Below, one piece after another: positions 54,001 through 63,000 of a stretch of DNA of 64,000 nucleotides. The notes beneath the pieces were generated by a model. The model did not search any database and was not told the origin of the DNA. It saw nothing but the letters and a program-made list of their open reading frames with translations. The position numbers were made by a program, and so were the translations under genes. Position 1 is the first letter of the stretch. Each line of letters opens with the position of its first letter. The DNA is from Argopecten irradians (Eukaryota; Mollusca; Bivalvia; Pectinida; Pectinidae), in assembly GCF_041381155.1 (NCBI RefSeq), contig NC_091138.1:37751604-37815603 (forward strand). The letters are read 5' to 3'.

Positions 54001-57000
54001 CTGTTTTAAGTAAACACCTATTGCATTGTGTGTTGAAATTTCCTTAATAAAAATAACATTATCAATATTTTTATCTGTTTGTTAAGGACTACGTGGCTTG
54101 ATCAATTTAGGAAACACCTGCTTTATGAATTGTATCGTACAAGCCTTGACTCATACCCCGGTGCTACGCGACTTCTTTCTGTCCGATCAGCACAGCTGTC
54201 AGGTGCAAAGCCAGGACGCAAGGCAGTGCCTTGTCTGTGAAATGTCACGTTTGTTCCAGGAGGTAAAATGTAGAATATGTACAACATAATTACATATTAC
54301 ATTACAGTGAGTTAATTAAAGCATAATAAAATTTTTACTGCAGGTTTGACATTATGAAGGTAGTTAGTTAAAAGGAACTAGTGATTTTGTTACCATTTTG
54401 TAATATGATACAGTAAAACATGTTTATAACGAACACGCTTATAACGAACACGCTTATAACAGAAGTCAATTTCATTCCCCACCATGGTTCCTATAAGATG
54501 TCTGTAATGTGTGTATAACAAACTACATGTATGTTTATACTGAAGTGAATTTGTTGGCCCCTAGAGGTTCATTATAAAGTGTTTTATTGTAGAAAGAAAC
54601 CAAATTCATTAACCCTTTTGAAAAATGTAGTAAATATTACCAAAAAGGATTTTCTCACCCTCGTTACTTTGCTTATAATCTAAATTCACATATTCAAACA
54701 CTTGAATTAGAATGTGCCAACTTATGTAACTTAAATGAAGATTTTTAGCTTTAGTCTGTTATTAATTTAGTTTGTTTCAAGAAATATTCAATATCAATTT
54801 TGATACGAAGAAAATCAAATGTAAAATCTGCAGGATACATATAAGTCAGTTGAAATATGCTATAATTATATTTACTTTTATGCCATAATTTGTTTTGTTT
54901 ATTGTAGTTTTATTGTGGAGCTAGAACTCCACACATACCATACAGATTACTTCACCTGGTGTGGACTAACGCGCGCCATCTAGCCGGTTACGAGCAGCAG
55001 GATGCTCACGAGTTCCTGATTGCGGCCCTGGATGTGTTACACAGACACTGTAAAGGTTATTCTGATGATATTTTATTATCCTACAACAGTCAGTTAAATG
55101 CAGGTTGGTACAGTTTTCGGTTATAGTGGATGTGTGTTCCTGTTATATGCAAATTAACACCAAGCGGATTCTTGGATTTGTTTTCAAATGAAACTTCCTT
55201 TGATGTTTTGAAATTTCACTGGAATTAAGTACTAATTGCAATATTGAATAAGAAACAGAGCGAAAATCTTTTCAAATTTTTGATTTTTAATGCCGAAAAA
55301 AAAGGGAAAAAAAGGAAATCAAAAATTTTCAAAGTCAAAATGAAAAAATCTCCAATATTTCTGAAGTGTGAAAGGAGCTTAATTGTCTTTGCTTTTCAGT
55401 TTTTCTTGACATACTTAAAAGTATTTTTAGCCTAACAAATTATTTCTGTGTTGGACTTGGTGTAAAACTCTTGAATAAAAACCACTCACATCCTTGATTT
55501 GACACACTTTCTCCTCACTATAACTTGGGACCTGCCACCTACTGTAGCACTCTCTCAGGGAAGTATTTTTTACTAACTCGACTAATGTGTTCAAACACCA
55601 TTTCTTGTACCTAGCGGATTATTGGTTATTGCAATTCTTACATATTGTTTTTCATTTTGGTTGTTATATAATGAAATGAAACTAACTTAAGTAACATTTT
55701 AATTTTAAATGTTATTTTAAGGTTTTCTTTCCTTTGTCATATATGCTTCATTTTCTTTCCTTTGTCATATATGCTTCATTTTCAACACCAATTTAATTAA
55801 ACAACATTATCAATAAGTCTCTTTTGATAGTATTATGATAGTATATCAGAAAGTCACACATTTCTAATTAGCTAAGTTTGATATTAAAGCATTCACTCCT
55901 GAATCCACATTTGAACTCTTTTCATACAAAGACTGGAAGAGTTAATTTTGAATTTTCAGGGGTGAATGAGTTAGAACAAAATATTTAACAGATGTGGTTG
56001 AATATAGTCCCGTCTTGTCACATTCCCTTGTGTAATGTTCTGTTCTGAATTCATACGAAATTAGGAATATTGATGCTTTACAGACATTTCTAGTTTCTAA
56101 GCTACAAACAGAAATACAGAATAGCCTAGCACAGTATATATTTGGATTACTAATGGGGATATCCGTGCTATTATGATTACAAAATAACATTTAGTAGACC
56201 TACTTTTACAAGAATACACTTAAGCATTTAGGGATATTGACCAGATGATAATTAGAAGGTGGGTTTGTAATGGTACAGGTATATTTTGTCATGTTTTCCC
56301 TCCCTGGGACCTCAGACAGTATTGATATACAATGACATGTTTTCCCTTCCCAAGGACCTCAAACAGTATTGGTATACAATGTCATGTTTTCCCTCCCCAG
56401 GGACCTCAGACAGTAATGATATACAATGTCATGTTTTCCCTCCCCAGGGACCTCAGACAGTAATGAAATACAATGACATGTTTTCCCTCCCCTGGGACCT
56501 CAAATAGTATCAGTATACAATGTCGTTTTTCCCTCCCCAGGGACCTCAGACAGTAATGATATTCAATGTCATGTTTTCCCTCCTCAGGGACCTCCAGACA
56601 GTAATGATATACAATGTCATGTTTTCCCTCCCCGGGACCTCCAGACAGTAATGATATACAATGTCATGTTTTCCCTCCCCAGGGACCTCAGACAGTAATG
56701 ATAACAATGTCATGTTTTCCCTCCCCAGGGACCCTTCAGACAGTAATGATATACAATGTCATGTTTTCCCTCCCCAGGGACCTCAGACAGTAATGATATA
56801 CAATGTCATGTTTTCCCTCCCCAGGGACCTCAGACAGTAATGATATACAATGTCATGTTTTCCCTCCCCAGGACCTCAGACAGTAATGATATACAATGTC
56901 ATGTTTTTCCCTCCCCACGGACCTCAGACAGTAATGTATACAATGTCATGTTTTCCCTCCCCAGGGACCTCAGACAGTAACGGTATACAATGTCATATTT

Positions 57001-60000: not shown

Positions 60001-63000
60001 ATCGCGCCGATTAGGGTTATTATATTTTATTTAAAATTGAATAAATTGGGCCTAATATCTCAGGCAGTAATGTACAAGCTTCCAAGAGTCCGTTTTTTTC
60101 GTTGCATATGTCTACCAGCGGCTTGGAATTTAGTTGTGGCTTGGCGATTCTATACATGTATGCATTGACGAACTTTATGTGCATATCTTGCAATGTTTTT
60201 GCAACACATTGTTTGCGTTGTTTGAAAGTTGTGTCCGACTGTACTTTCGTTTGAACTTGAAGCGATAACAATATCATGAATGTCTTACTGTCTTTCTGTG
60301 TCACACAAGCGTCTGTCTCTTTCGTAACAATCAGTAGTTGGACACAAAGTCTGTTTTGCCGGCCATTGATCAATTAATAACCTGTTTACACATCTTTCAG
60401 AACATCGTACCTTCGTCATGTCTTGGCCACAACATTCGTTCAGCCATGTCGAAGCGTTTGCTATCCTGTTGATGTATTGGCTTCAGTCCCTTTTTTCACA
60501 TGAATCCAGAGTCAATAACTGCCATTGTTCTCTGTTTGTTTTGACTTTTTAAATGCCAAAACAAGTCAGGGGGATTTGCCCGGCCTTTTTGCCGCCATAT
60601 TGCTACTGATACTTGAGGTAGGGTCATCAAGACGCTTTACAGCAGGCAGTGATTATGCTTTTAAGCGCTTTTCTTACACAGATTAGATATGTGTAACTAT
60701 TAAAAGAAGACGAAAACACATAAAATAAATCCGGGAAATATTAAGGAATTTTTTACTCGCCGTTTGGCGATACATTGTTAATTTTTAACTCGCCTTTGGG
60801 AATATTTACTCGCATATGCTGAGTAAATTTCTCTCAACTTTGAGGCTGCTTCTGATCAGGGCTAGTGAAAAATTGATGCTACTAGCCATTGGGCTAGTGC
60901 AAAATTTTCAGAATTGTACACCCCTGCATGATCAGACAGATATACAATGTCATATTTTCCCTCCCCAGGGACCTCAGACAGTAATGATATACAATGTCAT
61001 GTTTTCCCTCCCCAGGGACTTCAGACAGTAATGATATACAATGTCATGTTTTCCCTCCCCAGGGACCTCAGACAGTAATGATATACAATGTCATGTTTTC
61101 CCTCCCCAGGGACCTCAGACAGTAATGATATACAATGTCATGTTTTCCCTCCCCAGGGACCTCAGACAGTAATGATATACAATGTCATGTTTTCCCTCCC
61201 CAGGGACCTCAGACAGTAATGATATACAATGTCATGTTTTCCCTCCCCAGGGACCTCAGACAGTAATGATATACAATGTCATGTTTTCCCTCCCCAGGGA
61301 CCTCAGACAGTAATGATATACAATGTCATATTTTCCCTCCCCACGGACCTCAGACAGTAATGATATACAATGTCATGTTTTCCCTCCCCAGGGACCTCAG
61401 ACAGTAACGGTATACAATGTCATATTTTTTTCTCCCCACGGACCTCAGACAGAAATGATATACAATGTCATGTTTTCCCTCCCCAGGGACCTCAGACAGT
61501 AATGGCAGTGGTAACCCTCATCACTGTAACTGTATCATAGACCAGATCTTTACTGGCGGTCTCCAGTCTGATGTTACGTGTCAACAGTGCAAGTAAGTAG
61601 TCACATCACGATGCCTCACCCTGTTAGTATTGTTATGTTGACCTATTGACCTAGAGACTCTCGAAATTTTTTAATAAAAAATTGACTCGCACAGATATCT
61701 CTAACATTTTACTCTTGTCATTTGAAACCCAGCTGTGAAAATCAAAATACATAAACTTCTTCAGTACAGAAAAAAATGCTATTATGAAACATTGTGAATG
61801 ATCAAAGTTAGACAACAATGTGAATGATCAAAGTTAGACATTATGTCCAAAATACATCAAGAGAGTCCAATAGGTCATGTGAAAAAAAGCTATGGTCACG
61901 TACTGTGTAACTTCATGACTGTATACTATTCATAGGAGGGTGTGAAGTTTGTTGATCCAGCGAAATTATTCTCTAACCACTTAAAATTTGAAATGTGTTT
62001 TAATGTATTAAATATATATTTTCAGTAACGTTTCCACAACGATAGATCCAATCTGGGATATATCTTTGGATTTAGGTCCTGGTCCACCGCCCGGGGGTAA
62101 CAGTAACTCCAACTCTTCTCCAAACTCAGGTGAGTCACAATTCCAACTCTACTCCAAACTCAAGTGAGTCACAAGTCCAATTTTCCTCCAAACTTGAGTG
62201 ACAGTAACTCAAAACGCAGGTGGGTCACAATATCTCCTAACTCTTCTCTAAATTCAGATGAATCACTTGTCACAAGTACCCTATTAGTGTATTAAGCAAT
62301 AAATCATATTTGATATTTAGTTGATATGTTTAAAACCATACTTTCATTATGTTCATAAGAAATACATGCTTTTTATAAAAGAGTGACAATTTCCTTGTTT
62401 CAGGTTTTTCTAATAGCCCCGGAACATATGAACCTACCTCACTTTTAGAATGTTTAAAAAGGTAAGAAACTAAAACTTTTCTGCTAGTTTTATAAGATAC
62501 AGCATTATGTATAATGTACAATGTGTTATAATCACGCTCCATTTAATATATCCCCCACAACAACGTTAAGAGGGGGAGGGGAGTGTATTCTGAAATTGGT
62601 TTGTCCGTCTGTCTGTCTGTCTATCCATCTATATGTAGACACAACTTGTGAACTCCTCCTATTAGACTATAAGTCATCCTCTCTGGTGACAGTTCTAGTT
62701 TAGGTGGGGGTAGTATAACCCATATCTTGTGTACTTTCCCTCCAGTCCTGTTGCTATATGGAGGTGGGTGCTTTATTGCAGACAATTTTCTAGTTTTGTC
62801 ATCTTTTATGTAGAGTAATAAAACTGTATATTGTTTGTATCTTCGTTGCTAGGTTTACAAAACCTGAACACCTGGGCAGTTCAGCCAAGATAAAGTGTAG
62901 TACATGTGGTAGCTATCAGGAATCTACCAAACAGCTCACCATGAAGAAACTACCAATAGTTGCATGTTTTCATCTCAAGGTAAGACAAATTTTATCTTCT

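What the first reader, a model, noticed from the sequence alone, without database searches (positions are those of the whole stretch)
56290..61504. USP22 exon 7 splice acceptor amplified about 50 times
The 47-bp unit of a large minisatellite is the exon 7 boundary itself: polypyrimidine tract, CAG, and the first coding bases (GGACCTCAGACAGTAATG). About 39 copies lie at 56290-58118 and 12 at 60926-61504, the last being the acceptor in use. Dozens of near-identical competing 3' splice sites precede a constitutive exon of an essential chromatin gene. How the spliceosome settles on the last one, or whether it always does, is a real question. Some units have lost the AG (CCCACGG), which could be drift or selection.
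Basis: partly seen in the sequence, partly recalled or inferred. Interest (0 to 1): 0.78.

Follow-up and report, generated by a model that had tools for sequence, protein, structure and literature searches.

The report
Splice acceptor amplified inside a minisatellite
In a scallop gene, the spot where one coding piece begins has been copied into about fifty tandem units, the real one last; such splice-site arrays were described before in lancelets, and here they look like a tolerated by-product of a repeat-rich genome.

Summary
A 47-bp unit (29 intronic + 18 coding bases of a USP22-like exon) lies in tandem at 56287-58125 (38.2 copies) and 60939-61504 (12.0), the last copy being the exon's own acceptor. 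An inserted mobile element splits the array. 41 of 50 units keep AG; all 40 decoys would give a premature stop if used. The genome (846 Mb; a striated-myosin exon identical to scallop myosin in 101 of 103 aligned residues) is very probably bay scallop. The kind is known: tandem repeats over exon-intron boundaries were named 'mirages' in amphioxus, where they are reported not to disturb splicing. The same window holds two more (DHRS7B-like donor, 14.6 copies; USP22 exon-8 donor, 2.8), and a myosin gene has one with 43 acceptors, all with AG. In 80 sampled loci, exon edges are repeated about as often as introns (9/160 vs 66/840), so boundaries are not hot spots: arrays arise everywhere and those crossing a boundary are tolerated, most likely because exon definition picks the copy next to the exon. 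Use of the last copy is inferred from frame and homology; no transcript was available. Three paper searches listed no mollusc case.

The parts
Start of the exon not determined
56287..58125 (+). array block A, 38.2 copies of the 47-bp acceptor unit
58126..60930 (.). stretch between the blocks, mostly an outer mobile element (about 58146-59608 and from 60849 to at least 60920) with a 1.24-kb inner one (about 59609-60846); true right end not determined
60931..61504 (+). array block B, 12.0 copies by TRF from 60939, with a partial unit before it; ends in the exon's own acceptor and first 18 coding bases
61487..61592 (+).
   Evidence: family match to Ubp8/USP chains
62108..62201 (+). 34-bp unit x2.8 over the exon-8 donor, a second boundary array in the same gene
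43125..43896 (-). 53-bp unit x14.6 over the donor of a DHRS7B-like exon (..[16 protein letters not shown]); GTAAGTACAG occurs 13 times, the real donor included

Best explanation
A boundary-spanning minisatellite ('mirage'). A 47-bp stretch holding the end of intron 6 and the first 18 bases of exon 7 was tandemly duplicated and grew into the intron by unequal exchange and conversion; a mobile element now splits it. The copies are decoys. The real acceptor is the last one because it is nearest, across the exon, to the exon's donor: in a 6.4-kb intron the exon is probably recognised first (exon definition), which favours the closest pair. Leakage to a decoy gives a premature stop and loss of that transcript, so it costs only a fraction of output. 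Shown: anatomy, frame, and that such arrays recur in this genome. Inferred: use of the last copy, exon definition, decay of leaked transcripts.
For: Unit, copy number and junction. 40 of 40 decoys lead to a stop before the exon 7/8 junction; only the last AG keeps the frame. Intron 6 is 6431 nt, exon 7 is 106 nt (coordinates). Identical variant units in distant places (A16 = B12, A30 = A38) show exchange along the array. The insert is repetitive elsewhere. Same anatomy at a myosin exon: 43 units, AG intact in 43 of 43, the real one included. 60-bp regions with >=2 further copies: exon edges 9/160, introns 66/840, exon centres 1/80, edge vs intron Fisher p 0.41; with >=1 further copy 13/160, 93/840, 2/80, p 0.33. 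Bay scallop drafts are 15.10% and 15.53% tandem repeat by TRF (PMC7090048, passages). Closest pair across the exon is favoured when alternative sites lie in large introns (PMC9225289, abstract). Amphioxus mirages are said not to yield aberrant mRNA (PMC3902484, passage; PMC3087553, passages).
Against: No transcript of this gene was seen, so use of the last AG is inferred. Intron 7 is only 433 nt, so the exon does not lie between two long introns. The unit just upstream of the real acceptor has lost its AG, as has the third one up, so local decoy loss may help. Acceptors are often chosen as the first AG after a branch point, and each unit could supply its own (recalled). The 80-locus sample is small and partly non-independent.
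Confidence: 0.75

Rival explanations
1. The array tunes gene dose: a share of transcripts uses decoys, all of which carry premature stops, so longer arrays lower USP22 output, and selection acts on array length.
For: All 40 decoys would give premature stops; 16 decoy units are identical to the real one over 47 bases.
Against: No expression or length data. Exon edges are repeated about as often as introns, as expected without selection for such arrays.
Confidence: 0.07
2. Decoys are being silenced by selection (AG to AC), leaving the last site in command.
For: The G of AG is the most variable column among 26 distinct unit types (49 full units): 6 against about 1 expected, Poisson P 0.0005, 0.025 after correction for 47 columns. 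The nearest upstream unit has lost AG.
Against: Unit types are not independent: four of the six share the same G-to-C change, and the other two (A2, A13) still have an AG next to it. 40 decoys keep AG. The myosin array keeps 43 of 43.
Confidence: 0.08
3. Copy number and contact with the exon are assembly artefacts.
For: Arrays are hard to assemble; a 98% partial tandem copy of the gene's 3' part sits about 20 kb downstream.
Against: Units differ from each other, a mobile element sits inside, and the same anatomy recurs at unrelated genes.
Confidence: 0.05
4. Some units are used as micro-exons or as steps of recursive splicing.
For: Each consensus unit has an acceptor and a weak donor-like ACA|GTAATG 12 nt later (read from the unit); 12 nt keeps the frame.
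Against: The two bases after the AG column are GG in 50 of 50 units, not GT, so no ratchet site is formed. The donor-like site lacks G at -1 and +5.
Confidence: 0.03

Closest known systems
'Mirages' of amphioxus (Adh, globins BflGb6 and BflGb9, TnC, PGBD5); PMC3087553 and PMC3902484, passages seen
   Same: Tandem repeat unit spans an exon-intron boundary, at acceptor or donor side; many units keep splice signals; concerted evolution of units.
   Different: Here very probably a bivalve, with 50, 43 and about 15 units; the BflGb6 haplotypes have 6 and 3 units of 150-160 bp. Copy numbers of the Adh and TnC cases were not seen. No splicing data here.
Intron gain by repeat expansion (PMC2395259 in Cryptococcus, PMC2812944 in human paralogs; passages seen)
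   Same: Repeat expansion copies or activates splice signals and enlarges introns.
   Different: No new intron is evident here; the exon set looks unchanged and only the intron has grown.
Splice-site proximity under exon definition (PMC9225289, abstract seen)
   Same: Predicts the acceptor nearest the exon's donor.
   Different: That work concerns alternative sites in a database and test genes, not tens of near-identical natural copies.
NAGNAG-type tandem acceptors (recalled)
   Same: Several AGs before one exon.
   Different: Spacing is 47 nt with its own polypyrimidine tract in each unit, not 3 nt.

Membership tests
mirage (boundary-spanning minisatellite) | Repeat unit contains an exon-intron boundary of the host gene | tested here: met
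   29 intronic + 18 coding bases in the unit; last unit is the exon start
mirage (boundary-spanning minisatellite) | Many units keep the splice signal | tested here: met
   41 of 50 units with AG
mirage (boundary-spanning minisatellite) | Concerted evolution among units | tested here: met
   identical variant units in distant places; TRF also reports a 144-bp period
mirage (boundary-spanning minisatellite) | Regular splicing is kept | not testable with these tools
   no transcripts held; frame supports only the last AG
mirage (boundary-spanning minisatellite) | Length polymorphism, somatic instability | not testable with these tools
   one assembly only
recursive splice site | AG directly followed by GT | tested here: not met
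   GG after the AG column in 50 of 50 units
NAGNAG tandem acceptor | two AGs 3 nt apart | tested here: not met
   47-bp spacing
USP22/Ubp8 deubiquitinase | sequence similarity of the exons to SAGA ubiquitin hydrolase | tested here: met
   best PDB matches 6tbm_Q (E 1e-24) and Ubp8 chains (E 1e-21 to 4e-20); other USPs follow. Orthology to USP22 itself was not tested by a tree

The most novel reading that the evidence does not exclude
Boundary-spanning arrays are a genome-wide feature of this scallop, so thousands of constitutive exons sit behind decoy splice sites; the spliceosome tolerates tens of identical competitors, and array length variation gives a natural, allele-by-allele titration of splice-site choice and of nonsense-mediated loss of essential transcripts.
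Probability: 0.3. Interest if true: 0.75.

Novelty: new member of a known kind. Interest (0 to 1): 0.5.

Why it matters
Rules of splice-site choice were worked out largely with a few competing sites (recalled). Here nature offers up to 50 near-identical sites in front of exons of conserved genes, in an animal whose RNA can be sequenced. It also suggests that the amphioxus 'mirages' are not peculiar to lancelets but follow from any high rate of minisatellite birth.

Tried and rejected
Boundary arrays as hot spots: not supported in the sample (9/160 edges vs 66/840 intron regions). Enrichment by TRF edge position (overlapping TRF rows counted apart): on the donor side 5 array edges fell in the first 50 bp against about one per later bin in the 60 myosin/UCH loci, and none in the first 250 bp on the acceptor side outside the match; the 20 kinesin loci showed the reverse (acceptor 7 in the first 150 bp, donor none). 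Not used as proof. Splice-junction calling with a rough weight matrix of my own placed only 39 of 80 donors and 27 of 80 acceptors and missed cases seen by eye (L019, L035, L083); it gave 3 of 66 edges against 79 of 819 intron points with >=1 copy; set aside. RNA structure at the real acceptor: no signal (z -0.05). COX1 search for species identity: no hit. Selection on AG: see rivals. Duplicate gene copy as an array-free control: it starts at 61534 inside exon 7 and so lacks the array.

Sample limits: 80 loci = the 30 best of 82 myosin-head matches, the 30 best of 74 UCH matches and 20 of 130 kinesin matches, taken from high rows without stops. 26 of 80 matches have stops inside, so their match edges are not all exon edges; some loci overlap or lie in one gene. 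The array exon itself is not among the 80. Matches to TCP1, protein kinase and adaptin gave coordinates only and were not analysed. Of the 9 repeated edges, L035, L083 and L091 show clear copies of the splice junction; L019 is degenerate; L013, L027, L045, L051 and L067 are repeats near the edge without a clear junction copy. Of the 4 edges with just one further copy, L030, L031 and L064 show the junction once more at 76-87%, L077 does not.

Full report
What is there. TRF and a wrap-around alignment confirm a 47-bp tandem array at 56287-58125 (38.2 copies) and 60939-61504 (12.0 copies). The unit is ATATACAATGTCATGTTTTCCCTCCCCAG|GGACCTCAGACAGTAATG: 29 intronic bases with a polypyrimidine tract, then the first 18 coding bases. 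Exon 6 ends at 55055, exon 7 is 61487-61592, exon 8 begins at 62026; exon 8 ends at 62129 and the next exon follows in phase with [19 protein letters not shown] (read). The protein matches SAGA ubiquitin hydrolases best (6tbm_Q, then Ubp8 chains). In the two alignments shown the 18 coding bases fall in a weakly conserved stretch before a C-x-C pair.

An inserted element. The 2.8 kb between the blocks is repetitive. Its outer part (query 1-1469 and 2710-2781) has copies at 7 other places, six at 87-88% and one in two pieces at 83 and 94%, with the two parts adjacent there; its inner 1.24 kb has copies at 32 other places at 92-98%, among the 40 candidates scored. So the simplest reading is one array broken by an element that carries a second one. 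Identical variant units occur in both blocks (A16 and B12), so units have been exchanged along it.

Decoys. 41 units keep AG before G(G)GAC: 40 decoys and the real one. Read from exon 6 through each decoy into exon 8, 40 of 40 meet a stop before the exon 7/8 junction; only 61487 stays open. 16 decoy units equal the real one over all 47 bases; the unit just upstream of the real acceptor has CCCACGG, so the nearest intact decoy is 95 nt away. The G of AG is the most variable column among 26 distinct units (6 variants, about 1 expected), but four of these are the same change and two leave an AG, so I do not read it as selection.

Which animal. In a striated-myosin exon of this assembly 101 of 103 aligned residues equal the striated-muscle myosin of 1dfk/1b7t, the two others being the first two, probably outside the exon; the next chains fall from 226 to 203 and 143 bits (that 1dfk/1b7t are from the bay scallop Argopecten irradians is recalled). 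The assembly has 846 Mb in 1508 contigs, and C1 to C16 look like chromosomes (lengths shown run from 75.5 Mb for C1 to 34.5 Mb for C16); bay scallop drafts are 835.7 and 874.8 Mb (PMC7090048, passages). I take it as bay scallop or very near.

Not alone. In the same window a 53-bp unit is repeated 14.6 times over the donor of a DHRS7B-like exon on the minus strand (43125-43896; GTAAGTACAG 13 times, the real donor included), and a 34-bp unit 2.8 times over the donor of USP22 exon 8 (62108-62201). At C5:36365997-36368545 a myosin exon (..CNPYFVRCIKPN) is preceded by 42.9 copies of a 60-bp unit made of its acceptor and first 19 coding bases; 43 of 43 units, the real one included, keep AG. Two kinesin exons show the same at an acceptor (L083, four further copies in the stretch held) and a donor (L091, three further copies).

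How common. In 80 loci around conserved exons, a 60-bp region with at least two further copies nearby is found at 9 of 160 exon edges (acceptor 4/80, donor 5/80), 66 of 840 intron regions and 1 of 80 exon centres; edges and introns do not differ (Fisher p 0.41). With at least one further copy the counts are 13/160, 93/840 and 2/80 (p 0.33). Clear junction copies with three or more further units were seen at 3 of 160 edges, and one further copy at 3 more. Published bay scallop drafts are 15% tandem repeat by TRF. So boundary arrays are what a high rate of array birth gives if copies on the intron side are nearly harmless. The sample is small and cannot exclude mild depletion at edges.

How it works. 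The copies can be harmless only if the copy beside the exon wins. In long introns the closest pair across the exon is favoured (PMC9225289, abstract). The real acceptor lies 106 nt from its donor; decoys of block B would make exons of 201 to 624 nt and those of block A over 3.5 kb (coordinates). This step is inference; no transcript was at hand, and intron 7 is short (433 nt). A local fold of the real acceptor shows nothing special.

Known kind. Tandem repeats over exon-intron boundaries are called mirages in amphioxus (PMC3087553, passages), with Adh, troponin C, globin and PGBD5 cases that are said not to give aberrant mRNA (PMC3902484, passage). In the held library the three full-text searches that could have shown a mollusc case (listings seen) listed none; the original Adh paper was not read. 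I file this as a new member of that kind, very probably in a new phylum and with more units than the globin cases.

Noticed in passing
window 61534-64000 and L069-L071 (G000:C5 about 37813137-37841539): A 98% tandem partial copy of the 3' part of the USP22-like gene lies about 20 kb downstream, starting inside exon 7 and with a stop in its copy of the [10 protein letters not shown] exon.
   Followed up: partly
window 1-2921 and 2975-4081: Two further large minisatellites (52 bp, 38.9 + 17.5 copies; 41 bp, 26.9 copies) side by side; no gene was assigned to their edges.
   Followed up: no
window 19587-19892: 53-bp unit x5.8 containing TTTTTCAGGCACAAATC, acceptor-like; no exon was tied to it.
   Followed up: no
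window 49225-50323, with 48777-49132 and 50646-51003: 157-bp unit x7.0 flanked by a 358-bp inverted repeat (98%), perhaps a mobile element carrying a tandem array.
   Followed up: no
L035+L092, G000:C5:36365997-36368545: The 42 decoys of the myosin array fall in two coding variants, 21 with AATCCA and 21 with ACCCCC, neither equal to the exon (AACCCC): the copy in use is outside the homogenised set.
   Followed up: yes
window 51851-52309 (-): Open frame resembling the start of a RecQ-type helicase (recalled resemblance, not searched), beside the USP22-like gene.
   Followed up: no
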